From NCBI GenBank assembly GCA_913056125.1, contig CAJXNC010000004.1, forward strand, positions 1 through 64,000: a DNA stretch of 64,000 bases. The letters are read 5' to 3'. The first letter of the stretch is position 1. Each line of letters starts with the position of its first letter. A program made the position numbers and the translations under genes. Source of the DNA: an uncultured Altererythrobacter sp. GTDB taxonomy: Bacteria > Pseudomonadota > Alphaproteobacteria > Sphingomonadales > Sphingomonadaceae. The notes beneath the pieces were generated by a model. It ran no database searches, had not been told where the DNA came from, and saw nothing but the letters and a program-made list of their open reading frames with translations. Shown here piece after piece: positions 29,232 through 59,252 of the stretch.

Positions 29232-29815
29232 GCTTGCGTCCTGACCTTGCCAAGATTGCCGAATTGGTCCCGACAGGATCGCGCGTGCTCGATGTCGGTT
29301 GCGGCGAGGGCGATTTGATGGACGTCCTGCGTCGCGAAAAGAGGATCGATGCTCGCGGGCTGGAGATCGATCCCGAACTGGTCGAGAAATGCGTCAGCCG
29401 CGGGCTCTCAGTGGTGCAGGGCGATGCCGATCGCGATCTGACCGAATATCCCGATGCCGCCTTCGACGTCGCGATCCTCAGCCAGACGCTGCAAACTGCC
29501 GAACGGCCCGACTACATGCTCGACCAGTTGCTGCGGATCGGGCGTACGGCCTTCGTCTCATTTCCCAATTTCGCCTATTGGAAGATGCGCTTCTCGCTGC
29601 TCACCAATGGCCGTATGCCGGTGACGCGGCATTTGCCGGTCAGCTGGTACGAGACGCAGAACATTCACCATGTCACGGTGAAGGATTTTCGCGAGCTGAT
29701 CGCCGACAAGGGCGTGACGGTGGAGGGCTGCTGGTTCTTCGCCGGGGGCATGGAGATTAGCAAATCGCGCCCCAATTGGCGCGCCGAGCATGCGGTTTTC
29801 CAGTTGAGCCGCTAA
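29228..29815 (+). CDS. metW: Methionine biosynthesis protein MetW
   Basis: A 195-residue methyltransferase-fold partner of MetX. SAM-binding-like motif I is [15 protein letters not shown]; further family patterns are [79 protein letters not shown] and [15 protein letters not shown]. MetW binds and activates MetX in several proteobacteria. Translation is coupled to metX. Its TAA overlaps the stop codon of the convergent GNAT gene. Confidence 0.96.
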
Positions 29816-30678
29816 CCCAGCTCGAAAGTGGTGACGCCGTAAATGCGCTCGTGCCGTATGTCGGGTGCCGGGCCGAGATACATGCGCGCGCAGCCGAACA
29901 CCTCTTCCATGCCGTGCCGTTCGACCAGCGCCATGGCGTCCGGATTGTTTTCTGGCGCATCGAGGAAGAGTGGGCCGCCAGCGGCAAAGGCGGACAGGCG
30001 CTGGTAAAGCGCCTCCGCCGCTTCGGCATCATTGGCGAAGAGAGGACCGATCTTGCAGCCCTCACCGCATTTGCGGACCACGCCATAGCCTGCCAGCTCG
30101 CCATTGCGCTGGAAGCCGAGCGCCAGGGATTGGTCATGGGGCTGGGCGATCCATTGCCGCAGGAAAGTCTCGCGCGGGGCCGGAAAGCAGGTGCGATCAT
30201 AGGCCAGCAGGTCCTCGAAGGGGACGAGTGCAAGCGGCACGATCCGCTTGTCATCCGGGGCCATGCCCAACGCGACTTCTGTGCGGTAACGCAGGTTCCG
30301 GTGCGAAAAGGCGAAGCCGCCTTTCGCATAATAGGACTGCATGTTGAACACGCCGTCCATTCCGATGGTCGCGCCGGGATTGAGCCGCTCGATCAGCCGG
30401 TCCCGCCTGGCGTACCAGATTTCATTACCGAGCCCGCGCCCGCGGAATTCGGGGCGGACGATGAAGAAGCCCATGAAGCCATATTCCCCGGCATAGGAGG
30501 TGATCGTGCCTCCGCCGACAAGCTTGCCATTGAGCTCGGCCGCAATGAAGGCCTCGGGATCGTTGTTCCAGAAAATCCCCGCATCGTTTAGGCCCGGATT
30601 CCAGCCTTCGGCTTTTGCCCAGGAGACGAGCACATCCACTTCGGGGCGCGTCATCTGCCTGATAGCAAGCTGGCTCAT
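29812..30678 (-). CDS. GNAT acetyltransferase, two-domain
   Basis: A 288-residue acetyltransferase. The N-terminal GNAT domain carries the acetyl-CoA loop region FFIVRPEFRGRGLGNEIW (RxxGLG type) and the preceding LVGGGTITSYAGEYGFMG strand. The C-terminal half (CGEGCKIGPLFANDAEAAEALYQRLSAFA) resembles the Acetyltransf_18 domain that often follows it. The substrate is unknown. It is the last gene of the long minus-strand train; its start overlaps the fdhD stop by four bases, so it is co-translated with formate dehydrogenase maturation. The stop overlaps the convergent metW stop. Confidence 0.88.
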   Translation of the reverse strand: MSQLAIRQMTRPEVDVLVSWAKAEGWNPGLNDAGIFWNNDPEAFIAAELNGKLVGGGTITSYAGEYGFMGFFIVRPEFRGRGLGNEIWYARRDRLIERLNPGATIGMDGVFNMQSYYAKGGFAFSHRNLRYRTEVALGMAPDDKRIVPLALVPFEDLLAYDRTCFPAPRETFLRQWIAQPHDQSLALGFQRNGELAGYGVVRKCGEGCKIGPLFANDAEAAEALYQRLSAFAAGGPLFLDAPENNPDAMALVERHGMEEVFGCARMYLGPAPDIRHERIYGVTTFELG

Positions 30679-31448
30679 GGCTGGCCTGCATTCACGCAGA
30701 TCACGCTGTCATTGCGGGCGAGGCACCAGAGGCTAAGGCCAGCAGCTGTCGCGCGCTCTACCGCCATGCTGGTGGGCAGCGAGATGGTGACCAGCGTGGT
30801 TGCCCCGGCGCGCACCGCCTTCTCGACGATCTCGTAAGAACAGCGCGCGGAGGAGAGGATAAAGCCGCCGGTCATGGGCTGTTTCTTGCGCGCCATGGCG
30901 CCGACCAGCTTGTCCATCGCATTGTGACGTCCGACATCCTCGCGCGCGCAGATGATACGGCCACCACTATCGGCAAAGGCGGCGGCATGGGCTGCCCCGG
31001 TTGCTTTGGTCAGTGGCTGGTGGTCGCGCAATTGGCCAAGCGCAGAGAAGATCGCTTCGGGATTGATGGCCTGGTGTACGCCGACCTTGGGCAGCGGCTT
31101 GGATACGGCATCGAGATTCTCGATCCCGCAAAGCCCGCAGGAACTTTCCGCCACGCGCGTGCGTACGCGCTCGGTCAGCTTGTCGATCCCGAGGCCCGAC
31201 AGCTGCGCGCGGCAGATCCAGCCCTTTTCGACCTCGACCACATCGAGATCGGTTACGTCGGATGGCGATGCGGCAAGCCCTTCGGTCAGGGCAAAGCCCA
31301 GTGCGAAATCCTCGAGGTTCGATGGCGTGGCCATCATTACCGCATAGGAGAGCCCGTTATATTCGAGCGCGACCGGGACTTCCGGGACCCAATTGCGAGA
31401 GACGGGGCGCGAGGCCCCGTCCCGTGCATATTCGATTGAATCGGCCAT
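30675..31448 (-). CDS. fdhD: Formate dehydrogenase accessory sulfurtransferase FdhD
   Basis: Transfers sulfur from a cysteine desulfurase to the molybdenum cofactor, giving active formate dehydrogenase. The 257-residue protein has the swinging-loop CxxC motif as CGLC at residues 104-107, plus CAREDVGRHNAMDKLVGAM and SSARCSYEIVEKAVRAGATTLVTISLPTSMAVE, all typical. It follows fdsD by 11 bases and overlaps the GNAT gene, so it is expressed with the enzyme it matures. Confidence 0.96.
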   Translation of the reverse strand: MADSIEYARDGASRPVSRNWVPEVPVALEYNGLSYAVMMATPSNLEDFALGFALTEGLAASPSDVTDLDVVEVEKGWICRAQLSGLGIDKLTERVRTRVAESSCGLCGIENLDAVSKPLPKVGVHQAINPEAIFSALGQLRDHQPLTKATGAAHAAAFADSGGRIICAREDVGRHNAMDKLVGAMARKKQPMTGGFILSSARCSYEIVEKAVRAGATTLVTISLPTSMAVERATAAGLSLWCLARNDSVICVNAGQP

Positions 31449-31459
31449 GGCCGAAGGCT

Positions 31460-31675
31460 TTAGGCCGCCTTGGCGTCCGCCACCAGCTTTTGAATCGCGT
31501 CACGGGCGATTGGCGAGAGGTCCGCCATATCACTGGCAAAGACCTGCGCTTTCATGCGCGGATCCCAGAACTTCCAGATATGCTCCGCGGTCGCGTCAAC
31601 GGCGGCGTCATGGCCATTGGCTTCGAAATTGGCCGCAATCTGGTTGGCCATGCGGTTCAGCTTGTTGAGGTCCAT
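31460..31675 (-). CDS. fdsD: Formate dehydrogenase delta subunit
   Basis: A 71-residue small subunit of soluble NAD-dependent formate dehydrogenase. The protein begins MDLNKLNRMANQIAANFEANG and contains HIWKFWDPRMKAQV and LSPIARDAIQKL, the FdsD pattern. The ATG overlaps the fdsA stop as TAATG. FdsD is needed for assembly or activity of the Mo subunit in related enzymes. Longer in-frame readings upstream lie inside fdsA and are not used. Confidence 0.92.
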   Translation of the reverse strand: MDLNKLNRMANQIAANFEANGHDAAVDATAEHIWKFWDPRMKAQVFASDMADLSPIARDAIQKLVADAKAA

Positions 31676-34527
31676 TACTCGGCGGGCTCCATTTCGTCCG
31701 TCTCGATCCGGCGCGCCATGGCGGCGAGGTCGGCATATTCCTGCTGCCATTCGCTCGGGCCGTTGGACGGCGTCACCTGCACGGCGGTGACCTTGTATTC
31801 GGGGCAGTTGGTTGCCCAGTCGGAATTGTCGGTGGTCACCACGTTTGCCTGCGTGTCCGGGTGGTGGAAGGTGGTGTAGACCACGCCCGGGGCCACGCGG
31901 TCGGTCACTTCCACGCGCAGGGTGGTTTCGCCCGCACGGCTGGCGAGGCGCGCGAAATCGCCCGTCTTCATGCCGCGGTTCTCGGCATCGGTCGGGTGCA
32001 TTTCGAGCACGTCCTCATGGTGCCAGGCATTGTTTTCCGTACGGCGGGTCTGTGCGCCGACATTGTACTGGCTGAGGATACGGCCCGTGGTCAGCAGCAG
32101 CGGGAAGCGCGGACCGGTCTTTTCGTCGGTCGGCACATATTCGGTCATCACGAACTTGCCCTTGCCGCGCACGAAGCCGTCAACATGCATGATCGGCGAG
32201 CCCATTGGCGCCTTGTCGTTGACCGGCCACTGGAGCTGTTCGTTGGCGTCGACGCGGTCCCAGTTGAGACCGGCAAAGCCCGGCGTCAGGCGGGCGATCT
32301 CGTCGAGGATCTCGCTCGCATGACTGTAGTTCCACTCGCAGCCGATCGCATTGGCGAGCAGCTGGGTGACTTCCCAGTCCTCATAGCCATTGGCCGGTTC
32401 CATCACCTTGCGCACGGGCTGCACGCGGCGTTCGGCATTGGTGAAGGTGCCGAACTTCTCGAGGAAGGTCGAACCCGGCAGGAAGACATGCGCATAATGC
32501 GCGGTCTCGTTGAGGAACAGGTCGTGCACGATCACGCAGTCCATCGCGGCAAGGCCGGCGGCGACGTGATGTGTGTCAGGGTCGGACTGGAGGATGTCCT
32601 CGCCCTGGATGTAGATTGCCTTGAAGCTGCCATCTACGGCGGCATCGAGCATGTTGGGAATGCGCAGGCCCGGTTCCGGGTCCAGCTTTACGCCCCAATC
32701 CTTCTCGAACAGCTCGCGCACGCTGGCGTCGGAGATGTGGCGATAGCCCGGCAGTTCGTGCGGGAAGGAGCCCATGTCGCAGGCGCCCTGCACGTTGTTC
32801 TGGCCACGCAGCGGGTTCACGCCCACGCCTTCGCGGCCGATATTGCCGGTCACCATGGCAAGGTTGGCGATCGCCATAACGGTCGAGCTACCCTGCGAGT
32901 GCTCGGTCACGCCGAGGCCGTAATAGATCGCGCCATTGCCGCCGGTGGCGAAGAGGCGGGCCGCCTCGCGCACGGTTTCGGCCGGAACGCGGGTCACGGC
33001 TTCGAGGAATTCGGGGCTGTGCTTCTCGTCGGAAACGAAGCGCGCCCATTCCGAATATTCGTCCCAGTCGCAGCGTTCCTTGATGAAGGCTTCGTCCGCC
33101 AGGCCCTCGGTCACGATGACATGGGCGAGGCTGGTCAGCACGGCGACATTGGTGCCCGGCTGCAGCGGCAGGTGATGCGCGGCATTGATGTGCGGGCTCT
33201 TCACCAGGTCGATACGGCGCGGATCGACGACGATCATCTTGCCGCCTTCACGCAGGCGCTTCTTGATGCGGCTGCCGAAGACCGGGTGGGCATCGGTGGG
33301 GTTGGCGCCGATCAGCAGGAAGACGTCGGTCTTCTCCGCCGAATCGAAATTCTGCGTGCCGGCGCTGGTGCCGAAGGTGGTCGACAGGCCGTAGCCGGTC
33401 GGGCTGTGGCAGACGCGGGCGCAGGTATCGGTGTTGTTCGAACCGAAGCCGGCGCGGATCAGCTTCTGTACCAGGAAGGTTTCTTCATTGGTGCAACGGC
33501 TGGAGGTGATGCCGCCCAGTGCCTGCGGGCCATGCTCGGCCTTGATCTTCTTGATGCGATCCGCGGCAAAGCCGATCGCCTCTTCCCAGCTGACTTCGCG
33601 CCAGGGCTGGTCGATGCTCTCGCGCACCATCGGCTTGGTGATGCGGTCCTTGTGGTTGGCATAGCCCCAGGCGAAGCGGCCCTTGACGCAGCTATGGCCG
33701 TGATTGGCCTTGCCGTCCTTCCACGGCACCATGCGCACCAGCTGCTCGCCGCGCATTTCGGCGCGGAAGGCACAGCCGACGCCGCAATAGGCGCAGGTGG
33801 TGACCACTGCGCGCTCGGGCTTGCCGATCTCGGTGACACTCTTCTCCATCAGCGCGCTGGTCGGGCAGGCCTGCACGCAGGCGCCGCAGCTGACGCATTC
33901 GGAAGACAGGAAATTGTCTTCGCTCTGGCCGGCGGAAATGACGCTGGCAAAGCCGCGTCCGTCCACGGTCAGCGCAAACGTACCCTGCACTTCGCCGCAG
34001 GCGCGAACGCAGCGCGAGCAGACGATGCACTTGTCGGCAGCGAAGGAGAAATAGGGGTTGGACTTGTCGGGCGTGGTGCCGAGGTGGTTGGCGCCCTCAT
34101 AACCATAGCGCACATCGCGCAGACCGACATTGGCCGCCTGGTCCTGCAATTCGCAATCGTTGTTGGCAGAGCAGGTCAGGCAATCGAGCGGGTGATCGGA
34201 GATATAGAGCTCCATCACGCCCTTGCGCAGCTTTTCGAGGCGCGGGGTCTGCGTCTTGACGACCATGCCCGGTCCGACCGGCGTGGTGCAGCTGGCGGGC
34301 GTACCGCGCGCACCTTCGATCTCGACCAGGCACAAGCGGCAGGAGCCGAAGGCTTTCACATTGTCCGTGGCGCACAGTTTGGGAATGTCGCCGCCGATTT
34401 CGGCAGCGGCGCGCATCACCGACGTGCCGGCCGGCACGGTGACCTCGCGCCCGTCGATCGTCAGGGTGACCTTTTCCTCGGACTCGACTTCGGGCGTCCC
34501 GAAATCCTTCTGGCGTTCAAATCCCAT
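31675..34527 (-). CDS. fdsA: NAD-dependent formate dehydrogenase, molybdenum subunit (alpha)
   Basis: Catalytic subunit oxidising formate to CO2. The 950-residue protein has an N-terminal 2Fe-2S domain (Cys52, 63, 66, 80), a His/Cys 4Fe-4S site (HPLDCLTCSANNDC, residues 112-125), two 4Fe-4S clusters (CIVCSRCVRAC at 167-177 and CVSCGACVQAC at 211-221), another 4Fe-4S (CAYCGVGC at 245-252) and the bis-MGD molybdenum domain. The Mo ligand is Cys373 in ARVCHSPTGYG, encoded by TGC, so no selenocysteine is used. The C-terminal molydopterin-binding domain includes GRILSQYNVGAQTRRT. It overlaps mobA upstream (11 bases) and fdsD downstream. Confidence 0.97.
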   Translation of the reverse strand: MGFERQKDFGTPEVESEEKVTLTIDGREVTVPAGTSVMRAAAEIGGDIPKLCATDNVKAFGSCRLCLVEIEGARGTPASCTTPVGPGMVVKTQTPRLEKLRKGVMELYISDHPLDCLTCSANNDCELQDQAANVGLRDVRYGYEGANHLGTTPDKSNPYFSFAADKCIVCSRCVRACGEVQGTFALTVDGRGFASVISAGQSEDNFLSSECVSCGACVQACPTSALMEKSVTEIGKPERAVVTTCAYCGVGCAFRAEMRGEQLVRMVPWKDGKANHGHSCVKGRFAWGYANHKDRITKPMVRESIDQPWREVSWEEAIGFAADRIKKIKAEHGPQALGGITSSRCTNEETFLVQKLIRAGFGSNNTDTCARVCHSPTGYGLSTTFGTSAGTQNFDSAEKTDVFLLIGANPTDAHPVFGSRIKKRLREGGKMIVVDPRRIDLVKSPHINAAHHLPLQPGTNVAVLTSLAHVIVTEGLADEAFIKERCDWDEYSEWARFVSDEKHSPEFLEAVTRVPAETVREAARLFATGGNGAIYYGLGVTEHSQGSSTVMAIANLAMVTGNIGREGVGVNPLRGQNNVQGACDMGSFPHELPGYRHISDASVRELFEKDWGVKLDPEPGLRIPNMLDAAVDGSFKAIYIQGEDILQSDPDTHHVAAGLAAMDCVIVHDLFLNETAHYAHVFLPGSTFLEKFGTFTNAERRVQPVRKVMEPANGYEDWEVTQLLANAIGCEWNYSHASEILDEIARLTPGFAGLNWDRVDANEQLQWPVNDKAPMGSPIMHVDGFVRGKGKFVMTEYVPTDEKTGPRFPLLLTTGRILSQYNVGAQTRRTENNAWHHEDVLEMHPTDAENRGMKTGDFARLASRAGETTLRVEVTDRVAPGVVYTTFHHPDTQANVVTTDNSDWATNCPEYKVTAVQVTPSNGPSEWQQEYADLAAMARRIETDEMEPAE

Positions 34528-35047
34528 TGCTCTGCTCCATCGCGGCCAAATCGGCCGGGGTGTTTATGTTTGCCGGTGTGGATGCACTCTTCACGGCCCG
34601 CGCATCCACGGACTTCGCAAAAGCCAGCATCGAATGGCGTCCTTCACTCTGGAGGATAGCCTCGACTGCGCCTGCAGTTTCCACATTCCAATGGCCGATT
34701 ACCGGCTGACTTTCAAGATATGCTGGCGGAGGCGAAAGATCCGACAACAAATCCTGCGGCAGCGCGACAGAATCGACCCCGCAGGTTAAGATAGTTGCGT
34801 AGTCCAGATCCCGCGCGTGGCGCAGCCCGGCAGCAATACCGCCCAGTGGCCCCATACCGGCATGCGGCCAGTCGGGGATGCACGGGGCGGGACCGGTCTC
34901 TCTTCCTGCTATCACAACCATCTCACACCATCCGGACAAGGCATCCACTGCACGCGAAATCAGTGTACGCCCGTCCAGTTCAGCCAGGGCCTTGTCGCTG
35001 CCGAAGCGGGAACTGAGTCCGCCAGCCAGGACAACGCCCAGGATCAT
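34517..35047 (-). CDS. mobA: Molybdenum cofactor guanylyltransferase
   Basis: Attaches GMP to molybdopterin to form the MGD cofactor that FdsA requires. The 176-residue protein shows the nucleotidyltransferase start LAGGLSSRFGSDKALAELDG, the PDWPHAGMGPLGGIAAGLRHA segment and the metal-binding region TCGVDSVALPQDLL (the second half of the usual CDxP is changed to CGVDS). It is inserted between fdsB and fdsA: its ATG overlaps the fdsB stop (TAATG) and its end overlaps the fdsA start by 11 bases. That placement ties cofactor synthesis to subunit synthesis. Confidence 0.88.
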   Translation of the reverse strand: MILGVVLAGGLSSRFGSDKALAELDGRTLISRAVDALSGWCEMVVIAGRETGPAPCIPDWPHAGMGPLGGIAAGLRHARDLDYATILTCGVDSVALPQDLLSDLSPPPAYLESQPVIGHWNVETAGAVEAILQSEGRHSMLAFAKSVDARAVKSASTPANINTPADLAAMEQSNGI

Positions 35048-36603
35048 TATTCCGCTGCGTCCAGCGCCTGCTCGACGACTTCGGGATTGCTCACGAAATC
35101 CTCCGGCCAGTGCTTGAGCGCGGACATCACCGGATAAGGGGTGAAGCCGCCCAAGGCGCAAAGCGAGCCGAACTTCATTGTCTCGCACAGATCGGTCAGC
35201 AGGCCAATTTCCTCGCCGGCGCTGCGGCCTTCATCCTTCTTGGTATTGTGCATCTGCGGAGCCAGTTCCAGCGTGTCACGCTGGCGGCCGCCCTTGCGGA
35301 TGCGCTCGATGATTTCCTGCCCGCGCACTGCACCGATACGGCAGGGCGTGCACTTGCCGCAGCTTTCCTCGGCGCAGAATTCCATCGCGAAATGAGCCAT
35401 GGCACCCATGTCGGCGGTGTCGTCGAAAACGGTCACGCCGGCATGGCCGATCAGCGCGTCGGCGGCGGTGAAGGCCTCGTAATCGAAGGGAATGTCAAAC
35501 TGGTCGGGGTGGATATAGGCGCCGAGCGGGCCGCCTACCTGCACCGCCTTGACCGGACGACCGGTGGCTGTGCCGCCGCCGATCTCGTTGACCAGCTCGC
35601 CCAGCGTGATGCCGAAGGGGACCTCGTAAAGACCGCCATATTTGATGTTGCCGGCCAGCTGGATCGGCATGGTGCCCTTGGAGCGATCCATGCCGCGCTC
35701 GGCATAGGCAGCAGCGCCGCCTTCCTGCAGGATATGCGGCACGGCAGCCAAGCTGAGCACATTGTTGACCACGGTCGGCTTGCCGAGGAAGCCCTCGAGC
35801 GCCGGAAGCGGCGGCTTGGCGCGCACTTCGCCGCGCTTGCCTTCGAGCGAGTTCAGCAGCGAAGTTTCCTCGCCGCAGACATAGGCCCCTGCACCCAGGC
35901 GCACTTCGCACTTGAACGGCGCGATGATGTCTTCGCACAGCTTGAGCGCTGCATTGAGCTTGCGATGCGCGTCGGGATATTCGCTGCGCAGGTAGATATA
36001 ACCCTGCGATGCGCCAACGGCCTCGCCGGCAATCGCCATGCCTTCGATCAGTGCGAAGGGATCGCCTTCCATCGCCATGCGGTCGGCAAAGGTGCCGCTA
36101 TCGCCTTCGTCGGCATTGCAGACGATGTATTTCTGCGGACCGGCGGCCTTGCGCACCGTTTCCCACTTGATGCCGGTCGGGAAGCCAGCGCCGCCACGGC
36201 CGCGCAGGCCGGAATCGAGCACTTCCTTGCAGATTGCTTCGCCGCCGAGAGTGCGCGCGCGCTTGAGGCCGCTCCAGCCGCCCGAGGCTTCGTAATCCTC
36301 GAGGCTGAGCGGGCGGGTCTTGCCTGCGCGGGCAAAGGTCAGGCGGGTCTGCGAGGAAATCCAGGGGTGTTCCTCGATGATGCCGATAGCCTTGTCGGAC
36401 GAGCCGTCAAGGATCGCATCGACATCGTCGAGCGTGGCCGGGCCGAAGCCCTTGCCGTCTACCTCGACCAGCGGTTCGAGCCACTGCATGCCCCAGGAGG
36501 AGGTGCGGTGGACCTCATGCCCCTTCTTCTCGAAGGCGGCGGCGAGCGCGTCGGCACCTGCCGCACGGGCGAGGGCGTCGTCGGAGATCTTGATGATGGT
36601 CAT
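35047..36603 (-). CDS. fdsB: NAD-dependent formate dehydrogenase, beta subunit (NuoF-like)
   Basis: Carries FMN and a 4Fe-4S cluster and reduces NAD+. The 518-residue protein has an N-terminal domain of about 110 residues, then the NuoF-type core: GLRGRGGAGFPTGIKW (NAD/FMN region), CNADEGDSGTFADR, GAGAYVCGEETSLLNSLEG and the cluster motif ESCGKCTPCRIGAVRG. ATG 36603 overlaps the fdsG stop (ATGA). Together with FdsG it forms the diaphorase part of the soluble complex. Confidence 0.96.
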   Translation of the reverse strand: MTIIKISDDALARAAGADALAAAFEKKGHEVHRTSSWGMQWLEPLVEVDGKGFGPATLDDVDAILDGSSDKAIGIIEEHPWISSQTRLTFARAGKTRPLSLEDYEASGGWSGLKRARTLGGEAICKEVLDSGLRGRGGAGFPTGIKWETVRKAAGPQKYIVCNADEGDSGTFADRMAMEGDPFALIEGMAIAGEAVGASQGYIYLRSEYPDAHRKLNAALKLCEDIIAPFKCEVRLGAGAYVCGEETSLLNSLEGKRGEVRAKPPLPALEGFLGKPTVVNNVLSLAAVPHILQEGGAAAYAERGMDRSKGTMPIQLAGNIKYGGLYEVPFGITLGELVNEIGGGTATGRPVKAVQVGGPLGAYIHPDQFDIPFDYEAFTAADALIGHAGVTVFDDTADMGAMAHFAMEFCAEESCGKCTPCRIGAVRGQEIIERIRKGGRQRDTLELAPQMHNTKKDEGRSAGEEIGLLTDLCETMKFGSLCALGGFTPYPVMSALKHWPEDFVSNPEVVEQALDAAE

Positions 36604-37028
36604 GCGTTTTCGATCAGCTTGGTGACCGACTGGCTGTCCAGTCGGATGTGGAGGTCGTCGCCGGTGCGCGCGGCGGGGCCGGCGCTGCAAAGGCCGAGGC
36701 AATAGACGGTCTGGATCTTCACCCGCTCGCCAGCCGCTGCATTGGCATCGCCGATCAGCTTTTCGACACCGCGTGCCTTGCAGGCTTCGGCGCGGCAGAT
36801 CTGCACGACGGGGCGCGGATCGGCTTCGCTCTTATAGTCGTGATAGAAGCTGACCACGCCGTGCACGTCCGCGCGCGTAAGGTTGAGCGCCTCGGCGATC
36901 TGCGCTTCGGTTTCCGCATCGACACAGCCAAGCTCGGCCTGGATGTCGTTGAGGATGGGCAGGAGCGGCCCTTCGCGATGGATGTGTTCGGCAATGATCT
37001 CGCCGATCTTCTCTTGCTTGCTACTCAT
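36600..37028 (-). CDS. fdsG: NAD-dependent formate dehydrogenase, gamma subunit (NuoE-like)
   Basis: A 142-residue 2Fe-2S subunit of soluble formate dehydrogenase. It has the thioredoxin-like NuoE fold with EALNLTRADVHGVVSFYHDY and cluster cysteines in CRAEACKARG and CLGLCSAGPAA. It begins 8 bases after the fghA stop, linking formaldehyde and formate oxidation in one transcript. Confidence 0.96.
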   Translation of the reverse strand: MSSKQEKIGEIIAEHIHREGPLLPILNDIQAELGCVDAETEAQIAEALNLTRADVHGVVSFYHDYKSEADPRPVVQICRAEACKARGVEKLIGDANAAAGERVKIQTVYCLGLCSAGPAARTGDDLHIRLDSQSVTKLIENA

Positions 37029-37886: not shown

Positions 37887-38270
37887 TCAATCCATCATGT
37901 GCAGGGCGCACAATTTGTGGCCGGTAGGGTCGCGCAGATAAGCGAGATAGAGCTTCATGCCGGCAAAATCGCGCGGTCCGGGCGGATCCTCGATGGCGGT
38001 TCCACCGGCGGCCAAGCCTGCAGCATGCCATGCATTGCATTGTTCGGGATTGTCCATCACGAAGCCGATCGTATTGCCATTGGCGACCGTCGCCGGTTCG
38101 CCATTGATCGGCCTGATGGCGATAAAGGCACCATCCTTGTGCCGATAGGTCACGCGCGTGCCCGCTTCGTCGACCACCCCTTCGGGGCCGCCAACAGCAG
38201 TGAAGACCGCATCGTAGAAGGTCTTGCTTTCGGCGAGGTCGTTCGTGCCGACCATGTTGTGGCTATACAT
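37887..38270 (-). CDS. VOC (glyoxalase-fold) protein, first of three tandem paralogs by coordinate
   Basis: A 127-residue single-domain VOC protein: YSHNMVGTNDLAESKTFYDAV, NGEPATVANGNTIGFVM, WHAAGLAAGGTAIEDPPG and YLAYLRDPTGHKLCALH. The three VOC proteins at 37887, 38276 and 38665 share the order (S/T/N)H-x-M/F-x-G-x-ND, NGEAAT, GFTIGF-like strand, DAWHAAGLA.GGT and AYLRDP.G.K, and arose by tandem duplication. VOC enzymes include glyoxalase I and other metal enzymes acting on glutathione adducts. In this operon a role in forming or sensing S-hydroxymethylglutathione is plausible but unproven. Fifty-one in-frame codons upstream are excluded because they lie in the next gene. Confidence 0.87.
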   Translation of the reverse strand: MYSHNMVGTNDLAESKTFYDAVFTAVGGPEGVVDEAGTRVTYRHKDGAFIAIRPINGEPATVANGNTIGFVMDNPEQCNAWHAAGLAAGGTAIEDPPGPRDFAGMKLYLAYLRDPTGHKLCALHMMD

Positions 38271-38275
38271 ACAGC

Positions 38276-38656: not shown

Positions 38657-38664
38657 GTCCGGGC

Positions 38665-51170: not shown

Positions 51171-51171
51171 G

Positions 51172-52889: not shown

Positions 52890-53945
52890 TCAGAGTCCGA
52901 AGATGGTTTCGGCATTGCTCTGGTAGAATTTTTTCATGGTCGCTGCGGGCAGGTCCATGTCATCGAGCAGTTCGACCTCGGCGGGCACGTACTGGTAGGG
53001 ATAGTCCATCGCATACATCACCCGGTCTTCGCCCATCACCTCCATCATTAGTTTGATCGAAGCGGGAGAAGGCAGGCCGCTGGTGGTTCCCCAGACATTG
53101 TTGCGCAGGTAGTGGTGCAGCGGATGCTTGAGCGGCTTGAGGCGCTCGTAACGCTGCGAACGGACCCCGGCATTGAACATGTAGTTCAGCCGGTCGATCC
53201 AGAAAGGCAGGCCTTCTGCGCCATGGCCCAGCACCAGCTGCAGGTCCGGGTATCGGTCGAACACGCCCGTCGTGAGCAGGCGCAGCGCGTGATAGCTCGT
53301 CTCGATCGCAAAGCCGAACACCGCGCCTTCCAGCCCGGCCTCGACCATGCCGCCGATCATGTTGTCGGGCGGCCCCTGCGGGTGGATGTAAAGCGGGATG
53401 CCCTCTTCCGCACAGGTTCGCAGGATCGGGTCGAACTGCTCCTCGTCGAGATAATGGCCGTGCGTATGGCTGTTGGCCTGCACGCCGTGGAAACCGAGCT
53501 CTTCCTTGCCGCGCTTCAGCTCCGCAGCGGACCACTCGGGGTCCTGTGGGCAGATCGCCGTCATGCCGTAAAAGCGGTCCGGATATTTCTCGCAAGCTGC
53601 CTTGAGATGGTCGTTGGCGCGGCTGGCAATGCCTTTGGCTTCCTCAACATCGTGGATCGACTGTACGCCCGGGCTGGTCAAAGCCAGCACCGCCTTGTCG
53701 ATCCCGGCATCGTCCATCGCCTTGATGCGCAGCTCACCCAAATCGAGCAGGCGCTCGCGGATGAAGGTGGTGCGTTCCGAAGGCGACGTGCCGTAGAACC
53801 CCCACAGAGAAACCGTGCCCTTGTCGGCGCGGCCTTCCTTCACGAGGCGCAGGATCGCATCGAGTTGCTCGGCCGTGGCGAAAGCTTCCTCGGTGGCGAT
53901 GCGGAGGTATCCGCGATCTCCGCCTGTCTTCAGTTCGTGGCTCAT
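52890..53945 (-). CDS. ligW: 5-carboxyvanillate decarboxylase (LigW family amidohydrolase)
   Basis: A 351-residue amidohydrolase-superfamily decarboxylase that removes the carboxylate ortho to the phenol, for example 5-carboxyvanillate to vanillate. The sequence runs very close to LigW of SYK-6 and Novosphingobium as I recall them: RIATEEAFAT, DKGTVSLWGFYGTSPSER, ALTSPGVQ, MDYPYQYV. The active-site residues land on the LigW numbers I recall: Glu19, His188, His241 and Asp314 for the Mn2+ site and Arg58/Arg252 for the substrate. The ATG overlaps the VAO stop (ATGA). It could equally act on 5-carboxyferulate, the product expected when a 5-formyl group is oxidised. Confidence 0.85.
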   Translation of the reverse strand: MSHELKTGGDRGYLRIATEEAFATAEQLDAILRLVKEGRADKGTVSLWGFYGTSPSERTTFIRERLLDLGELRIKAMDDAGIDKAVLALTSPGVQSIHDVEEAKGIASRANDHLKAACEKYPDRFYGMTAICPQDPEWSAAELKRGKEELGFHGVQANSHTHGHYLDEEQFDPILRTCAEEGIPLYIHPQGPPDNMIGGMVEAGLEGAVFGFAIETSYHALRLLTTGVFDRYPDLQLVLGHGAEGLPFWIDRLNYMFNAGVRSQRYERLKPLKHPLHHYLRNNVWGTTSGLPSPASIKLMMEVMGEDRVMYAMDYPYQYVPAEVELLDDMDLPAATMKKFYQSNAETIFGL

Positions 53946-55477
53946 GCGTTCTCCCTGAAATTCCTTGGCCAGATGCCCTGCTTGCCCGGCGAAAGGATGC
54001 CGTTCGGGTCGAGGCAGTCCTTGATCTGCTCGGCAAAGCGGCGCTGGATGTTGTCGTTGAAATCGTAGAGCGATGCGACCTCATCCATGAAGTCGAGATG
54101 GCTGCGATATTCGCCGTAACCGAGCTTGGCGGCAGGTTCGAGCATGGCCTTGGTCGCGGCATAGGCTTCGCGCGTCTGCGCCTCGTTCTTGGTGTCGAAC
54201 ACGATCAGCGCGACATGGATCATCGACCTCTTGCCGACGATGATCGCCGCTGAATAGTCGAGATTGCGTTCGTTCAGCACCTTGCGGGTGAGGTCGCGGA
54301 TCGCACAGCCATCCTTGCCCGCGATCGGCATGGCGCAGGAAAAGCCGATATGGCCGCCTTCCTCTCCGCCATACCAGCGGGTCATCTGGTCGAGCGCCAT
54401 GGAAGGAATGCCCGCCTGCACCACATGGTGCGGATTGGTCATCTCTGGCAGGTTGTGGCCGTCATATTCATCGAACATCACGCTCGCGCCGGGAATGGTT
54501 GCGAAGGCCTTTTCGATCTTGGCGCGGTTATGCGCCACCACAGGCGCATCCCCTTGCACCGCAAAGCGCATCACCCAGCGGCCGAAGCCGGGAGTGGCGG
54601 CGATCTTGTCGAGGACTTCCTCGGGGATCGAATCCTCGCCCGTGTACCATTCCTTGCGCTCGCCAAAGGCGCTGGCGGCACACACCGCGTTGATGATCAT
54701 CGGCTGGTTGGAGATCGTGCCGTCGATCATAAGCGGGCGCAGCACTTCGAGGAAGGCGCCGTAATGCTCTTCATTGTCGAGCATGAACCAGCCGGGCGCA
54801 TAGACTTCCGGCGGGTGCATCAGCGCCACTCCCATCTTGGTGACCACGCCGTAATTCGACTGGGTGAAGATGCCGTCCCAGCTGGGGCCGGCGCTATGCG
54901 GATAGACCAGCCAGTTATGCGGATTGCCCATCCCGCCCATCCCGGTGCGCAGGATCTCGCCATTGGGCAGGACCACTTCCATCCCGCAATGCTGGCCGAA
55001 ATGATCGCCCAGCGGCGTGTAGCCGACGCCATGTTCGAGCGCGTTACCGATCACGCTGCCGCCGCCAAGGTCGGGGCAGGACATCCACAGCTTGGAGCCG
55101 ATGCTCCGCAAATGGTCGTAGAGGTCGAAGAAGCGCACGCCCGGCTCCACCAGGGCCATGCAGTTTTGTTCGTCCACCTCGAGCACCCGGTTCATGCGCC
55201 GCAACGACATGGTGAACGTGCCCGTGACGCGCGGAGCGCCGCCGCCATAGCCCTTATTGCGGCCCTGGCTGCTGGTCCAGATCGGCGTCTTGTGCGCATT
55301 GGCGATGCGCAGCACCGCCTGCACTTCCTCGACCGATCCGGGCATCAGCACCGCGCCAGGAGCGTACCAGTCTCCCGGCGGGCCGAAAGGGTCACCGTGA
55401 TCGCGCATCCCATCCGCATCAAGGATGACGTTTTCGGCACCAAGTGCCGCCTGCATGTCGCGAATCGCGGCATCCAT
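53942..55477 (-). CDS. VAO/PCMH-type FAD-linked oxidase
   Basis: A 511-residue flavoenzyme of the vanillyl-alcohol oxidase family, which oxidises para-hydroxybenzyl or 4-alkylphenol groups through a quinone-methide. The FAD domain shows PGSVEEVQAVLRIANAHKTPIWTSSQGRNKGYGGG, DLGGGSVIGNALEHGVGYTPLGDHFGQHCGMEVVLPNGEILRT (described). The C-terminal cap contains His376 (GGHIGFS), which aligns with the covalent FAD-linking His of VAO (GAHLFFS, from memory). YGEYRSHLDFMD and DPNGILSPGKQGIWP match VAO closely. Substrate is probably a 4-hydroxyaryl compound. GGGAGAG precedes ATG 55477; the stop overlaps ligW. Confidence 0.89.
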   Translation of the reverse strand: MDAAIRDMQAALGAENVILDADGMRDHGDPFGPPGDWYAPGAVLMPGSVEEVQAVLRIANAHKTPIWTSSQGRNKGYGGGAPRVTGTFTMSLRRMNRVLEVDEQNCMALVEPGVRFFDLYDHLRSIGSKLWMSCPDLGGGSVIGNALEHGVGYTPLGDHFGQHCGMEVVLPNGEILRTGMGGMGNPHNWLVYPHSAGPSWDGIFTQSNYGVVTKMGVALMHPPEVYAPGWFMLDNEEHYGAFLEVLRPLMIDGTISNQPMIINAVCAASAFGERKEWYTGEDSIPEEVLDKIAATPGFGRWVMRFAVQGDAPVVAHNRAKIEKAFATIPGASVMFDEYDGHNLPEMTNPHHVVQAGIPSMALDQMTRWYGGEEGGHIGFSCAMPIAGKDGCAIRDLTRKVLNERNLDYSAAIIVGKRSMIHVALIVFDTKNEAQTREAYAATKAMLEPAAKLGYGEYRSHLDFMDEVASLYDFNDNIQRRFAEQIKDCLDPNGILSPGKQGIWPRNFRENA

Positions 55478-55512: not shown

Positions 55513-56943
55513 CTACGCTTCATGCACGGCCTTTGTCACCATGCAGGCGAGTACGCCTTCCATGCCGTCCTCACTGCCATGGCCGGACCACTTCACCCCG
55601 CCGAACGGCGCGTCTGCGCCGCCGATCATATGAGTGTTGACGCCGACCATGCCGGCTTCGAGCTGCGCGGCGAGGCGGCGCTGGCGCTGCACGTCGTTGG
55701 TCCAGCTATAGGCGGCAAGGCCATAGGGCAGGCGGTTGGCCTCGGCGATCATCTCTTCTTCCGTGCGGTAGGGATTGACCAGCGCGACTGGGCCGAAGGG
55801 CTCCTCATTCATGATCTCGGCATCGAGCGGGACTTCGGACAGGACCGAAGGGGCGTAGAAATAGCCCTGGTTGCCGATGCGCTTGCCGCCCGCGCCGAGC
55901 TTGGCACCCTTGTCCTTGGCGTTGGCGATGAAGCGTTCCATTGCTTCGGGGCGGCGTGGATTGGCCATCGGGCCCATCGTCGTGCCGTCTGCCAGGCCAT
56001 CGCCGACGACCTGTGCCTTGGCACCTTCGATGAAGCCGTCGCGGAACTTCTCGAACACGTCTTCCTGCACGATGAAGCGCGTCGGGCTGACGCAGACCTG
56101 GCCACAATTGCGATACTTGCCGAAAACGCTCGTCTGCAGCGCCTTGTCGACATCGGCATCGTTGAACACCAGCACGGGGCCGTGGCCGCCGAGTTCCATC
56201 GTTGTGCGGATCATGTTGTCCGCTGCCAGCTTGGCGAGATGCTTGCCGACCACGGTAGAGCCGGTGAAGCTTAGCTTGCGGATGATCGGGCTGGCGAGCA
56301 GGTGGCGGCTCACCTCGTCGGGAACGCCGAACACGGCCTGCGCCACTTCCTTTGGCAGGCCGGCATCGAGCAGGCATTGCAGCACGCCCAGCGCGGATGC
56401 AGGCGCTTCCTCGGCAGACTTGAGGATGACCGAGCAGCCCGCCGCGATCGGCGCGCCGAGCTTGCGGCCCGGATTGCCGAGCGGGAAGTTCCACGGCGCG
56501 AAAGCAGCGACAGGACCGACCGGCTCGTGCCGCACGGTCGAGCGCATGCCTTCGGGGCGGGTCAGTTCGCGCCCGTAATTGCGGAAGCATTCGCCGGCAT
56601 AGAAATTGAACAGGCCGACATTCATCATCACTTCGATGCGGCTTTCGGCCAGCGGCTTGCCTTCTTCCATCGTGGCGATGCGGGCGAGATCCTCTTGCCG
56701 CTCGACCATCAGGCGCGCGGCGCCCTGCAGCACAGCGGCGCGTTCCTGCGGGGTCGACTTGCGCCAGATCTTGAAGCCCTTGTCCGCCACTTCCAGCGCG
56801 CGATCGAGATCGGCGGCTTCGGCAAGCGGCAGTGCGGCCAAGGCCTCACCCGTCACCGGGTTGACGACGTCGAAGGTCCGGCGGCCGCCGCCGGATACTT
56901 TTTCGCCATCGATGATCATGTGGAGCGAAGGATAATCGGTCAT
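55513..56943 (-). CDS. NAD(P)-dependent aldehyde dehydrogenase
   Basis: A 476-residue class 3-type aldehyde dehydrogenase. Catalytic Cys is in NCGQVCVSPTRFIVQED, the general-base Glu in ELGGHGP, the NAD loop in FTGSTVVGKHLA, and the structural PWNFPLGNPGRKLGAPIAAGCSVILKSAEEAP segment is present. Closest in pattern to succinate-semialdehyde dehydrogenases, a group that also holds aromatic aldehyde enzymes. In this operon the likely job is oxidation of an aromatic or 3-hydroxypropanal side-chain aldehyde, or of a 5-formyl arene to feed ligW. GGGAGAG precedes ATG 56943. Confidence 0.91.
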   Translation of the reverse strand: MTDYPSLHMIIDGEKVSGGGRRTFDVVNPVTGEALAALPLAEAADLDRALEVADKGFKIWRKSTPQERAAVLQGAARLMVERQEDLARIATMEEGKPLAESRIEVMMNVGLFNFYAGECFRNYGRELTRPEGMRSTVRHEPVGPVAAFAPWNFPLGNPGRKLGAPIAAGCSVILKSAEEAPASALGVLQCLLDAGLPKEVAQAVFGVPDEVSRHLLASPIIRKLSFTGSTVVGKHLAKLAADNMIRTTMELGGHGPVLVFNDADVDKALQTSVFGKYRNCGQVCVSPTRFIVQEDVFEKFRDGFIEGAKAQVVGDGLADGTTMGPMANPRRPEAMERFIANAKDKGAKLGAGGKRIGNQGYFYAPSVLSEVPLDAEIMNEEPFGPVALVNPYRTEEEMIAEANRLPYGLAAYSWTNDVQRQRRLAAQLEAGMVGVNTHMIGGADAPFGGVKWSGHGSEDGMEGVLACMVTKAVHEA

Positions 56944-57021: not shown

Positions 57022-57774
57022 TCAGCCCTTCGCAGCCTCCCGTTCCGCATCTCGCTTGGCATCTTCTTCCCAGCGCTCGGCCACCATTTCCTCACCCGTG
57101 ATCGGGTGCTTCATGTGGAAGGGCAGGAGCTTGTGCGTCGGCCACAGGAAGAAGTTGTCATACAGCTCGTCCGGGCCCGCCGGATCCTCCGGATAGAGCG
57201 TTTTCAGGAAGGGCACATATTCTGCCTCGGTATAAGCCCAGCCCTTGTCGAAATCGGCATGCCAGTGCGGGAAATAGTTCAGCAGCTTGATGCGCCACTT
57301 GCCGTCTTCACCCTTCGTGTAGATGTTCTCGTAAATGCCGCCTTCCCACCACTGGCGCACGGGAAGTCCGGCTTCGGGATCGGCATAGTCCCTGTGCCGG
57401 CCGGCCTGCATCGTGCTGCGACCGCGCAGCCGCGCCGTCTTGCCGTCAGGGTCGATGTCGATAATCGTCTGGATCTGCGGATGGTCGAGCAGAAAGCCGT
57501 CGATCGGGCCGTTATTGTTATGGGTGAAGCGCTTGCGGAATCGCTCGATATAGAGGCGCTTTACGCCGGCCTTGCCCTTGAAGACGCCACCGAAGAAACG
57601 CACCTCGCAATCGTCGCTGAACAGGTCCACGACCTGGTCGTACATGCATTTGTCGATCAAATAGCCGTAGAGATATTGCAGTTTCTTCACGTCCAGCTCG
57701 TCCTCGCGGACGGTCAGGCGTTTTTCCATGTCGGCCAGCTTGGCCTCGAGCGCAGCAATGCGATCGTCTGACAT
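57022..57774 (-). CDS. NTF2-fold (SnoaL-like) protein, candidate deformylase/lyase
   Basis: A 250-residue protein with a coiled-coil start (ALEAKLADMEKRLTVREDELD), then the NTF2-like core LQYLYGYLIDKCMYDQVVDLFSDDCEVRFFGGVFKGKAGVKRLYIERF (described), YENIYTKGEDGKWRIKLLNYFPHWHADFDKGW and a C-terminal extension. It is paralogous to the 198-residue protein at 8777. The LdpA diarylpropane deformylases of Novosphingobium and SYK-6 have this fold, release formaldehyde and produce a stilbene, which would fit lsd and the frmA-fds genes nearby. That is inference from fold, size and context. It is the first gene of the ALDH-VAO-ligW operon; its promoter region holds MarR site 2. Confidence 0.85.
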   Translation of the reverse strand: MSDDRIAALEAKLADMEKRLTVREDELDVKKLQYLYGYLIDKCMYDQVVDLFSDDCEVRFFGGVFKGKAGVKRLYIERFRKRFTHNNNGPIDGFLLDHPQIQTIIDIDPDGKTARLRGRSTMQAGRHRDYADPEAGLPVRQWWEGGIYENIYTKGEDGKWRIKLLNYFPHWHADFDKGWAYTEAEYVPFLKTLYPEDPAGPDELYDNFFLWPTHKLLPFHMKHPITGEEMVAERWEEDAKRDAEREAAKG

Positions 57775-57788
57775 ACGCGACTCTCCCA

Positions 57789-57812
57789 ATTTGTATGTTC
57801 TGCTTACAATTG
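57789..57812. promoter_or_regulatory. Probable MarR operator (site 2)
   Basis: ATTTGTATG and GCTTACAATTG form an imperfect inverted repeat that matches site 1 at 42259, sharing ATTTGT..G...GC.TACAATT. It lies 14 bases before the minus-strand NTF2-like gene. A consensus -35 (TTGACA read on the minus strand, 57830-57835) sits just upstream, so a bound regulator would block this promoter. Confidence 0.68.
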
Positions 57813-57854
57813 CGAAAGCGCCTTGGACCTGTCAACGCCGGATCGCAATGGCTT

Positions 57855-59252
57855 CTAGCGACCCAATGCTTCCAGCCGCGCAACCTCCTCGCCATAGGGC
57901 TTGATCGCGCGATACATGAAGAAGGTGGCGATGGGCATGAACACCGCTGCAACGATCAGCAGCGCTTCCCACAGCTTGGCTGGATCACCCACGATGACAT
58001 CGCTGACCGTGCCGATCACCCAGCTGCCCATGGCCCCGAAGAAGGTATACATGAACAGGTAGAGCGCGGTGACCTGGCCGCGCATCTCGTTTGGCGCGAT
58101 GCGCTGGATGGCTGCATTCTGCGCCGGCGCGCCGGCTAGGCCGAACAGGCTGGTCATGGCCATGCAGGCGATTGCCAGCTCGGCCGAGGGCATGAGCGGT
58201 GCGCCAATGGCGAAGATGGTGGTGCCTGTGAAAATATAGGCGGTGGCGCGGATATTGCCGTCCTTGTGGCGCTTGTTCATCCAGGTGACGAAGATGTTGC
58301 CAAGCACCAAGCCGGAAAGGCTGGCCACCAACAGGACAGGCGCAAGGAAATTGCCGATCTCCGCCTCGTTCCAGCCAAAGGTGCGCGAGAGGAACGGTAC
58401 GCGCCACGCGGGCAGGCCCTGACTCTCGATGGCGGACATGGCCAGTGCCGCGAATAGCGGCCAGTAAACGGCGCCGCGCACGTTGATCGCCTTCAAGGCA
58501 TCAAGCCCGGTGAAGCCCAGCAATTTCTGGCCAAAGGTCGCATCGTCGGGAATCAGCGGGGCGGCGTCGGGCGGATTGCGCCGTTTGGGCTCCTTGACCG
58601 TCAGGAACAGCAGCGCAGCGATCAGGCAAGGCACGCCGATCCCGATCAGGATCCACTGCCAGTTGAAGATCGTCAGGCTGAGGAATTGCGTTCGCTCGGG
58701 CAGGCTGTCGGTAAAGCCGAGCAGGAAGCCGCCGCCCCACGTTCCCGCAGCATTGGCAGCAATGTAGGAGAGCTGCATCAGCGCAAAGACCAGCGGGATG
58801 CGCATGGGCCGGAAATAGTCGGCCATCATGGAATAGCTGCCCGGACCATTGGCTGCACCGCCGGCGCCTACGAACAAGCGGCTGCCGACCAGCTGGGTAA
58901 AGCTTTGCGCGATACCACCCAGTGCGGTGATGGCACCAAGAACCGCGATCGAACCCGAAAGCACGTATTTGCGCGGATAGAGGTCGACCAGGCGCGAAAG
59001 GGGAATGCCGACAAAGACGAAGGCGACCACGCTGGCCGGTCCGAGCACGAAGCCGAGTGCGCTGTCGGACAGTTCGAAGCTGTGTTTGATGCGTTCCGCC
59101 AGCATGGCGAAGACGGTAACGTCGAAGAAGTTGAGGAAGGTCGCAAAGATGATGACGAACAGCGCCCAGGAGCCCGCGCGCTCCGAAGGCCAGGGCATGT
59201 CCAGCGTCGCTTTCTGACCGGATGGCGTGCCCGGTGTGCTTGCAATCGCCAT
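57855..59252 (-). CDS. MFS transporter, spinster-like
   Basis: A 465-residue transporter with FLNFFDVTVFAMLAERIKHSFELSDSALGFVLGPASVVAF in the first helices, the GIPLSRLVDLYPRKYVL loop, RLFVGAGGAANGPGSYSMMADYFRPMRIPL and a cytoplasmic central loop rich in Pro/Lys. It is related in layout to the MFS at 51172 but clearly diverged. It precedes the NTF2-like operon by 80 bases on the same strand, so it may be a separate transcription unit read through into it. It is divergent from the NTF2-like gene at 59372. A perfect palindrome, TGACGCGCGTCA, lies between them. Confidence 0.88.
   Translation of the reverse strand: MAIASTPGTPSGQKATLDMPWPSERAGSWALFVIIFATFLNFFDVTVFAMLAERIKHSFELSDSALGFVLGPASVVAFVFVGIPLSRLVDLYPRKYVLSGSIAVLGAITALGGIAQSFTQLVGSRLFVGAGGAANGPGSYSMMADYFRPMRIPLVFALMQLSYIAANAAGTWGGGFLLGFTDSLPERTQFLSLTIFNWQWILIGIGVPCLIAALLFLTVKEPKRRNPPDAAPLIPDDATFGQKLLGFTGLDALKAINVRGAVYWPLFAALAMSAIESQGLPAWRVPFLSRTFGWNEAEIGNFLAPVLLVASLSGLVLGNIFVTWMNKRHKDGNIRATAYIFTGTTIFAIGAPLMPSAELAIACMAMTSLFGLAGAPAQNAAIQRIAPNEMRGQVTALYLFMYTFFGAMGSWVIGTVSDVIVGDPAKLWEALLIVAAVFMPIATFFMYRAIKPYGEEVARLEALGR

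What the first reader, a model, noticed from the sequence alone, without database searches (positions are those of the whole stretch)
29812..59252. Candidate pathway for lignin-derived biaryls with formaldehyde disposal built in
The set is coherent: GMC and VAO-type oxidases and an aldehyde dehydrogenase for side chains, an NTF2-fold protein of the LdpA fold, a dioxygenase with the exact LSD residue set, LigW, an AAHS transporter, and the full frmA-fghA-fds path. A beta-5 or beta-1 dimer would lose its gamma carbon as formaldehyde to give a stilbene, lsd would give vanillin plus a second aldehyde (5-formylferulate for beta-5), ALDH and LigW would turn a 5-formyl group into H, and formaldehyde would go to CO2 with NADH gain. 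Known parts are scattered in characterised sphingomonads; this close arrangement under one regulator looks new to me.
Basis: partly seen in the sequence, partly recalled or inferred. Interest (0 to 1): 0.88.

Follow-up and report, generated by a model that had tools for sequence, protein, structure and literature searches.

The report
Stilbene-sensor-controlled lignin-dimer and formaldehyde cluster
A sphingomonad chromosome carries a known pathway for breaking the beta-5 bond of lignin fragments beside its genes for burning off formaldehyde, and a shared DNA signal suggests that one stilbene-sensing repressor may control both.

Summary
The genes are as described. The core pathway is already published: PcfL, LsdD, FerD, LigW and a glutathione formaldehyde dehydrogenase degrade the beta-5 dimer DC-A in Novosphingobium aromaticivorans (PMC11323797). 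The four core genes keep one order in 45 of 80 named loci, so the core arrangement is not new. (2) A 21-bp imperfect palindrome in the marR/lsdD promoter (42260) and again before the PcfL operon (57790). It precedes the FerD-operon head in 66 of 105 related loci, and in congeners it also lies beside formate-THF ligase and ring-cleavage genes. The formaldehyde genes follow marR on one strand with small gaps, so co-control is plausible. (3) A DUF3237 gene (family of PhcF, PhcG, PinX) present in 36 of 39 LsdD genomes and 0 of 259 others of its family, though absent near lsdD in 21 of 86 loci. (4) Benzoylformate-decarboxylase-like and VAO accessory genes. New variant of a known kind.

The parts
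29812..30678 (-). GNAT-domain protein at the end of the formate dehydrogenase block
   Evidence: PF18014 1.6e-37
30675..31448 (-). FdhD, formate dehydrogenase accessory protein
   Evidence: PF02634 7.2e-64
31675..34527 (-). FdsA, NAD-linked formate dehydrogenase alpha
   Evidence: TIGR01591 907.7 bits (cut-off 666.25)
34517..35188 (-). MobA-like nucleotidyltransferase ORF (molybdenum cofactor) filling the FdsB-FdsA gap; start uncertain
   Evidence: PF12804 4e-23 (residues 51-151)
35047..36702 (-). FdsB, formate dehydrogenase beta (start probably internal)
   Evidence: PF01512
36600..37028 (-). FdsG, formate dehydrogenase gamma
   Evidence: PF01257; NF004638 147 bits, below cut-off 198
37037..37876 (-). 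FghA, S-formylglutathione hydrolase
   Evidence: TIGR02821 420.4 bits (cut-off 281.7)
37887..39114 (-). two or three glyoxalase-superfamily ORFs
   Evidence: PF00903 for two; the middle ORF (38276-38701) was not family-searched
39192..40304 (-). FrmA/FdhA, S-(hydroxymethyl)glutathione dehydrogenase; the only one found in the genome
40328..41746 (-). AAHS-type MFS transporter
   Evidence: below the curated cut-off
41777..42247 (-). MarR regulator, Saro_0803 family
   Evidence: NF053777 241.9 bits (cut-off 200)
42260..42280 (.). operator-like 21-mer between MarR and LsdD, overlapping a TTGCCT-16-TACAAT promoter-like site
   Evidence: (promoter hits there are not above shuffles)
42315..43796 (+). 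LsdD/NOV1-type lignostilbene dioxygenase
43836..44618 (+). HAD-IIA hydrolase
44627..46285 (-). GMC oxidoreductase, PhcC/PhcD-type candidate
46395..46862 (+). DUF3237 protein (family of the decarboxylases PhcF, PhcG, PinX)
   Evidence: PF11578 1.1e-42
46863..47864 (-). LysR regulator, part of a set seen besides the window only in G008 of the congeners fetched
47894..49614 (+). CMD-family and DUF1348 genes of the same set
49632..51221 (-). benzoylformate-decarboxylase-like TPP enzyme
   Evidence: NF005485 619 bits (cut-off 493)
51172..52803 (-). MFS transporter (MFS2)
52890..53945 (-). LigW2-type 5-carboxyvanillate/5-carboxyferulate decarboxylase
53942..55477 (-). VAO/eugenol-oxidase-type flavoenzyme
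55513..56943 (-). FerD-type aldehyde dehydrogenase (assigned by synteny)
57022..57789 (-). PcfL, phenylcoumaran gamma-formaldehyde lyase (NTF2/SnoaL fold)
57790..57810 (.). second operator-like 21-mer, upstream of the PcfL-FerD-VAO-LigW-MFS2-BFD run
57855..59252 (-). MFS transporter (MFS3)
59348..59887 (+). second SnoaL-fold protein, conserved neighbour

Best explanation
[quoted passage not shown] aromaticivorans type. PcfL removes the gamma carbon of DC-C as formaldehyde and leaves a stilbene. LsdD cuts the stilbene to vanillin and 5-formylferulate. FerD oxidises the 5-formyl group and LigW removes it as CO2, giving ferulate. FrmA-FghA-Fds take formaldehyde to CO2 with NADH. A Saro_0803-type MarR repressor sits on a 21-bp operator in the divergent marR/lsdD promoter and, by inference, on a second copy before the PcfL operon; a stilbene releases it. 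The minus-strand run marR-AAHS-frmA-glx-fghA-fds would then rise together with lsdD and the PcfL operon. DUF3237 (with GMC where present) offers a second route to the same stilbene, decarboxylation of the gamma-oxidised dimer as by PhcC/D and PhcF/G in SYK-6. BFD and VAO are side modules for aryl-C2 or saturated side chains. Shown here: gene families, orthology, synteny and motif conservation. Inferred: every enzyme activity in this strain, repressor binding at either site, and co-transcription of the formaldehyde genes.
For: PcfL clade of 71 rows with 100/99 support, apart from LdpA. LsdD residues incl. S283. LigW 63% to the LigW2 chain. PcfL-FerD-LigW-lsdD in this order in 45 of 80 named loci, with two more in another order, matching the locus numbers Saro_0796, 0797, 0799, 0802. 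MarR above the NF053777 equivalog cut-off. Motif before the FerD-operon head in 66 of 105 loci, and before LsdD in 77 of 84, versus 0 of 105 and 0 of 84 for each of six scrambled motifs (the motif was read off the lsdD upstream regions, so the lsdD count is partly circular and the FerD-operon count is the freer one). In the window 4 strand-matches at two sites, 0 of 100 shuffles reach 4. Site at the FerD-operon head in 58 of 69 loci with PcfL and 8 of 34 without. MarR to FdsG on one strand with no gap over 77 bp.
Against: frmA is next door at 11 of 49 loci with PcfL and 7 of 15 without, and marR-AAHS-frmA-fgh-fds stands in G250 without LsdD. A 226-bp FdsA-FdhD gap could hold another promoter. 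The promoter-like hit on the operator is one against a shuffle mean of 3.3, so it is no evidence by count. The lsdD site (TTGTTAG half) differs from the more symmetric sites elsewhere, so a paralogous repressor could bind the latter. 39 of 105 FerD-operon heads lack the motif. 21 of 86 LsdD loci lack a nearby DUF3237. No expression or binding data exist for this strain.
Confidence: 0.7

Rival explanations
1. The formaldehyde block is the cell's general detoxification set. It serves formaldehyde from any source, such as methoxyl removal, and sits beside the beta-5 genes by lineage history only.
For: The only frmA found in the genome. Adjacency also in PcfL-less loci G007, G016, G021, G141, G153, G071, G212. 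The block with MarR, AAHS and BFD but no LsdD in G250; BFD-AAHS with FghA or Fds genes in G084, G220, G272, which have no LsdD match.
Against: frmA lies directly downstream of marR-AAHS on one strand with 23-30 bp gaps. Motif copies also lie between formate-THF ligase and a divergent RmuC gene in 7 genus genomes, a possible second one-carbon target.
Confidence: 0.4
2. The main stilbene-forming route here is the SYK-6 decarboxylating one, GMC (PhcC/D-like) plus DUF3237 (PhcF/G-like), and PcfL is auxiliary.
For: GMC and DUF3237 lie side by side in the window. GMC next to DUF3237 with no PcfL-clade match in 13 fetched genomes (G048, G053, G071, G105, G118, G141, G153, G185, G202, G212, G236, G277, G312). 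DUF3237 in 36 of 39 LsdD genomes and 0 of 259 others.
Against: PcfL heads the operon that carries the motif, and the GMC is absent from the cluster in 13 of 13 congeners fetched. No identity to PhcC/D/F/G could be measured.
Confidence: 0.25
3. The NTF2 protein is an LdpA and the cluster serves beta-1 dimers.
For: Same fold and family; the PDB hits are 8abv, 8abt and 8abu, which I take to be LdpA from recall.
Against: It falls in the 71-row PcfL clade apart from those chains; an LdpA-like gene lies elsewhere, G000:C6:191633, 42% identical. Beta-1 cleavage gives two vanillins and needs no LigW.
Confidence: 0.06

Closest known systems
beta-5 (DC-A) pathway of Novosphingobium aromaticivorans DSM 12444, Saro_0796/0797/0799/0802 and fdhA Saro_0874 (PMC11323797)
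   Same: PcfL, FerD, LigW and LsdD orthologues in the same order; formaldehyde to CO2 by FdhA, FghA and Fds
   Different: There fdhA, fgh and fds are scattered (Saro_0874, 2822, 0732-0735); here they follow marR-AAHS. The window adds VAO, BFD-like, GMC and a LysR set
Saro_0803 (stilbene-responsive MarR repressor of nov1/lsdD; PMC10046596)
   Same: Equivalog-level match, divergent to lsdD, motif between the -35-like and -10-like boxes
   Different: In the passages seen the paper treats nov1; here the motif recurs before the PcfL operon and, in congeners, beside one-carbon and ring-cleavage genes
DCA pathway of Sphingobium sp. SYK-6 (PhcC/D, PhcF/G; reviewed in PMC12997858)
   Same: GMC and DUF3237 family members near a lignostilbene dioxygenase
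   Different: PcfL also present; sequence identity to PhcC/D/F/G not measured
4-hydroxybenzoylformate route of Rhodococcus jostii RHA1 (PMC9811514)
   Same: flavoenzyme related to VAO, benzoylformate decarboxylase and aldehyde dehydrogenase
   Different: Different organism and setting; here placed inside a beta-5 operon

Membership tests
PcfL-type beta-5 pathway | PcfL orthologue distinct from LdpA | tested here: met
   clade of 71 rows with 100/99 support. N. aromaticivorans PcfL itself was not in hand; N. subterraneum stood in for it
PcfL-type beta-5 pathway | LsdD with F59, Y101, K134, S283 and four Fe histidines | tested here: met
   F59, Y101, K134 and S283 from PMC8191317; the iron histidines are recalled and read off the sequence
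PcfL-type beta-5 pathway | FerD and LigW in the same cluster and order | tested here: met
PcfL-type beta-5 pathway | turnover of DC-C to stilbene and formaldehyde | not testable with these tools
   needs enzyme assay
Saro_0803 regulator family | match above the NF053777 cut-off and divergent to lsdD | tested here: met
   241.9 bits, cut-off 200
Saro_0803 regulator family | binding to the operator and release by a stilbene | not testable with these tools
   motif conservation only
PhcC/D-PhcF/G decarboxylating route | GMC oxidoreductase and DUF3237 protein | tested here: met
   family assignment of PhcC and PinX from PMC12607616
PhcC/D-PhcF/G decarboxylating route | orthology to SYK-6 PhcC/D/F/G | not tested
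   no SYK-6 sequence in hand
benzoylformate decarboxylase | NF005485 above cut-off | tested here: met
   619 bits, cut-off 493; catalytic residues judged only by eye and recall
formaldehyde block dedicated to PcfL | frmA adjacency should track PcfL | tested here: not met
   11 of 49 with PcfL, 7 of 15 without

The most novel reading that the evidence does not exclude
A stilbene-sensing MarR repressor (Saro_0803 type) is the switch of a whole lignin-dimer regulon. One operator controls stilbene formation and cleavage, formaldehyde oxidation, formate-THF ligation and aromatic ring cleavage, so the pathway's own intermediate turns on disposal of its toxic one-carbon by-product. DUF3237 is an unrecognised, widespread enzyme of the LsdD pathway that rescues gamma-oxidised dimers even in PcfL bacteria.
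Probability: 0.35. Interest if true: 0.65.

Novelty: new variant of a known kind. Interest (0 to 1): 0.5.

Why it matters
PMC11323797 names no regulator of the beta-5 pathway in its main text (passages), and Saro_0803 is discussed in PMC10046596 as the repressor of nov1 and a resveratrol biosensor part (passages). Linking the two gives a direct, cheap test (one protein, two DNA sites) and a set of candidate co-controlled genes for engineering lignin use, the formaldehyde step among them. The DUF3237 result points to a possible missing enzyme in a pathway thought complete.

Tried and rejected
LdpA/beta-1 reading of the NTF2 protein: rejected by tree. LysR as cluster regulator: rejected, present in 1 of 86 LsdD loci besides the window; the LysR-CMD-DUF1348 set is seen only in G008 among 13 congeners. 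PcfL-linked formaldehyde block: tested and not supported. PcfL is seen in 7 of the 13 congener stretches; two of the others (G003, G009) end before its place. N. aromaticivorans was not among the 80 loci kept of 402, so its genes are compared through N. subterraneum and others and through PDB chains.

BFD function from neighbours: LigW-BFD pairs without PcfL or LsdD in the stretch exist (L076, L082, L087), and BFD sits with AAHS and FghA or Fds genes in genomes without LsdD. The aryl-C2 reading is the best I have but is weak. A fold search of the DUF3237 model (mean pLDDT 94.1) gave 17 matches at E <= 0.001, all DUF3237-family chains as far as label them; no link to a decarboxylase of another family. 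The promoter scan was not above shuffles. Plasmid searches found PcfL-like genes in 2 records and BFD-like genes under 60% identity in 29, and added nothing decisive. No co-occurrence test is corrected for kinship. For these I lowered the novel case from 0.4 to 0.35 and the best explanation from 0.72 to 0.7.
Full report
WHAT IS THERE. The dioxygenase has the LSD residues F59, Y101, K134 and S283, the last shared by LSD2, LSD4 and NOV1, and matches two solved dioxygenases, 5j53 and 6xm6, at about 900 bits (that they are NOV1 and LSD4 is recalled). LigW is 63% identical to the solved LigW2 chain.

WHICH LYASE. The NTF2 protein is in a 71-row clade (100/99 support) with the syntenic genes of N. 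subterraneum, N. jiangmenense and Sphingobium species; the two solved chains that I take to be LdpA (8abt, 8abv; identity recalled, deposited as SnoaL-like proteins) fall in another clade. Of 298 family genomes searched, 41 matched at E <= 1e-40; I counted the 21 with 62% identity or more as PcfL and set aside the rest as LdpA-like or intermediate. The window's genome has one of those others at C6:191633. So this is PcfL, the beta-5 enzyme.

ALREADY KNOWN. Metz et al. 2024 (PMC11323797; abstract, two of three parts of the Results and the whole Discussion read) show by deletion and in vitro work that PcfL, LsdD, FerD and LigW degrade DC-A in N. aromaticivorans, with FdhA for formaldehyde, and that 82 organisms hold homologues of the four. 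The review PMC12997858 (abstract and four sections read) places this beside the SYK-6 route. Of 80 named loci kept of 402 (stretches of 10 kb or less on each side), 45 hold PcfL, FerD, LigW and lsdD in the window's order and two in another order. In N. aromaticivorans the formaldehyde genes are scattered by locus number.

FORMALDEHYDE BLOCK. In 13 of 13 congeners whose stretches I fetched (of 15 other genus genomes with LsdD), frmA lies next to AAHS-lsdD; FdsA is seen in 12 of 13, the last stretch ending first. FrmA at 80% or more is seen in 5 of the 80 named loci: L061, L062, L063, L066, L086. It is the only such dehydrogenase found in the genome; the next match is 36% identical. On 64 loci with enough sequence on both sides, frmA is adjacent in 11 of 49 with PcfL and 7 of 15 without. 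Congener G250, with no LsdD, PcfL or LigW match, keeps MarR-AAHS-FrmA-glyoxalases-FghA-FdsG-FdsB with BFD and FerD. The adjacency is thus real and conserved, but neither PcfL nor lsdD explains it.

THE REGULATOR AND ITS SITE. The MarR matches the NCBIfam equivalog Saro_0803 at 241.9 bits (cut-off 200). Saro_0803 represses nov1/lsdD, binds 22 bp between the -35 and -10 boxes and is released by resveratrol (PMC10046596; abstract and passages read; the 22 letters are not in the text, so identity of the sites is inferred from place and length). A MarR homologue is next to lsdD in 83 of 86 LsdD loci; the LysR occurs in 1 of 86. Upstream of lsdD the relatives share WTTGTTAG-N5-CATACAAT. With one mismatch allowed the core motif precedes lsdD in 77 of 84 loci and the head of the FerD operon in 66 of 105; six scrambled motifs give 0 of 84 and 0 of 105 each. 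The motif was read off the lsdD regions, so the second count is the freer test. In the window it occurs at two sites, 42260-42280 and 57790-57810; none of 100 shuffles gives as many matches. A promoter-like TTGCCT-16-TACAAT at 42253-42280 overlaps the first site, but such hits are no more common there than in shuffles (1 against a mean of 3.3). The FerD-operon site is present in 58 of 69 loci with PcfL and 8 of 34 without (not corrected for kinship). AAHS 0 of 51, FghA 0 of 19, FdsA 0 of 12 and FrmA 2 of 30 have a site of their own, which fits read-through from the MarR promoter: MarR, AAHS, FrmA, glyoxalases, FghA and FdsG lie on one strand with gaps of 77 bp or less, and the FdsB-FdsA gap holds the MobA-like ORF. 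Read-through itself is not shown.

THE WIDER REGULON. The exact pattern TTGTWWG-N5-CWTACAA is found in 16 of 26 genus genomes, and its backwards control in 0 of 26. Of the 25 with known LsdD status, 15 of 16 with LsdD and 1 of 9 without have it. I fetched the surroundings of 27 sites outside the cluster in congeners and 3 in the window's genome. They lie between formate-THF ligase and a divergent RmuC gene in 7 genomes (which of the two is served is open), before a glyoxalase-superfamily gene in 9, and before a presumed protocatechuate-cleavage operon in 8. For the last, Pfam was run on one genome only and gave an amidohydrolase with a divergent RraA-like aldolase (the names LigJ and LigK are recalled). 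In the window's genome one site precedes a gallate-dioxygenase-type gene (NF009904 633.8 bits, cut-off 412). Others lie by RraA-like and PrpF genes (L217) and by a methionine-synthase-like gene and a PQQ dehydrogenase (L211, L222); L228 and L232 have no assigned gene. The lsdD site has a different left half from the symmetric sites, so a second repressor is possible. Four papers in the library hold Saro_0803, of which I opened one. PMC11323797 and the DAP-seq note PMC12352068 do not hold it in their main text. I made no other search for a described regulon.

SECOND ROUTE AND ACCESSORY GENES. PinX has a DUF3237 domain and is 42% and 38% identical to PhcG and PhcF; PinY is 39% identical to PhcC, of the GMC family (PMC12607616, passages). 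In 298 genomes, 57 matched the DUF3237 query at E <= 1e-20; the 36 with 71% identity or more are all among the 39 LsdD genomes and none among 259 others, within 10 kb of lsdD in 30 of 36. 18 of 21 PcfL genomes have it. Yet 21 of 86 LsdD loci lack it nearby: by their titles 10 Novosphingobium, 8 Sphingobium, 2 labelled Gammaproteobacteria and 1 unnamed bacterium; a few stretches may end too soon. The GMC is in the window and in PcfL-less clusters of other genera, but in 0 of 13 congeners. The BFD-like query matched 45 of 298 genomes at E <= 1e-120; the 30 with 63% identity or more include 27 with LsdD. VAO lies between FerD and LigW in 13 of 13 loci that have it. R. jostii RHA1 glycolate oxidase, 24% identical to VAO, makes 4-hydroxybenzoylformate from 4-hydroxyphenylacetate, and BFD takes such acids to the aldehyde (PMC9811514, passages), the best lead for these two.

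VERDICT. Ordinary in its core, new in its control: a published pathway whose regulator, probable regulon and a neglected DUF3237 partner emerge here from comparative evidence. All activities in this strain and all binding events remain inferred.

Noticed in passing
G000:C4:116786-129216 (L183): A second GMC (39% identical), a DUF3237 gene and a lignostilbene-dioxygenase homologue lie about 75 kb from the cluster, resembling a phc or pin cluster.
   Followed up: partly
window 19535-21154 (-): A further lignostilbene-dioxygenase homologue (41% identical) lies in the window; the genome has four homologues besides LsdD.
   Followed up: no
L076, L082, L087: LigW next to a BFD-like enzyme (58-61% identical) without PcfL or LsdD in the stretch; in L087 preceded by a TonB receptor, an MFS transporter and a TetR gene: a possibly separate 5-carboxyaryl-C2 pathway.
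   Followed up: partly
L175, L177, L179: BFD-like gene beside AAHS with FghA and ALDH, or Fds, genes in genomes without an LsdD match.
   Followed up: partly
window 59348-59887 (+): A second SnoaL-fold protein beside the PcfL operon, with homologues at the same place in many congener stretches, of unknown role.
   Followed up: no
L211, L222: Motif copies by a methionine-synthase-like gene and a PQQ dehydrogenase-cytochrome gene in two congeners.
   Followed up: partly
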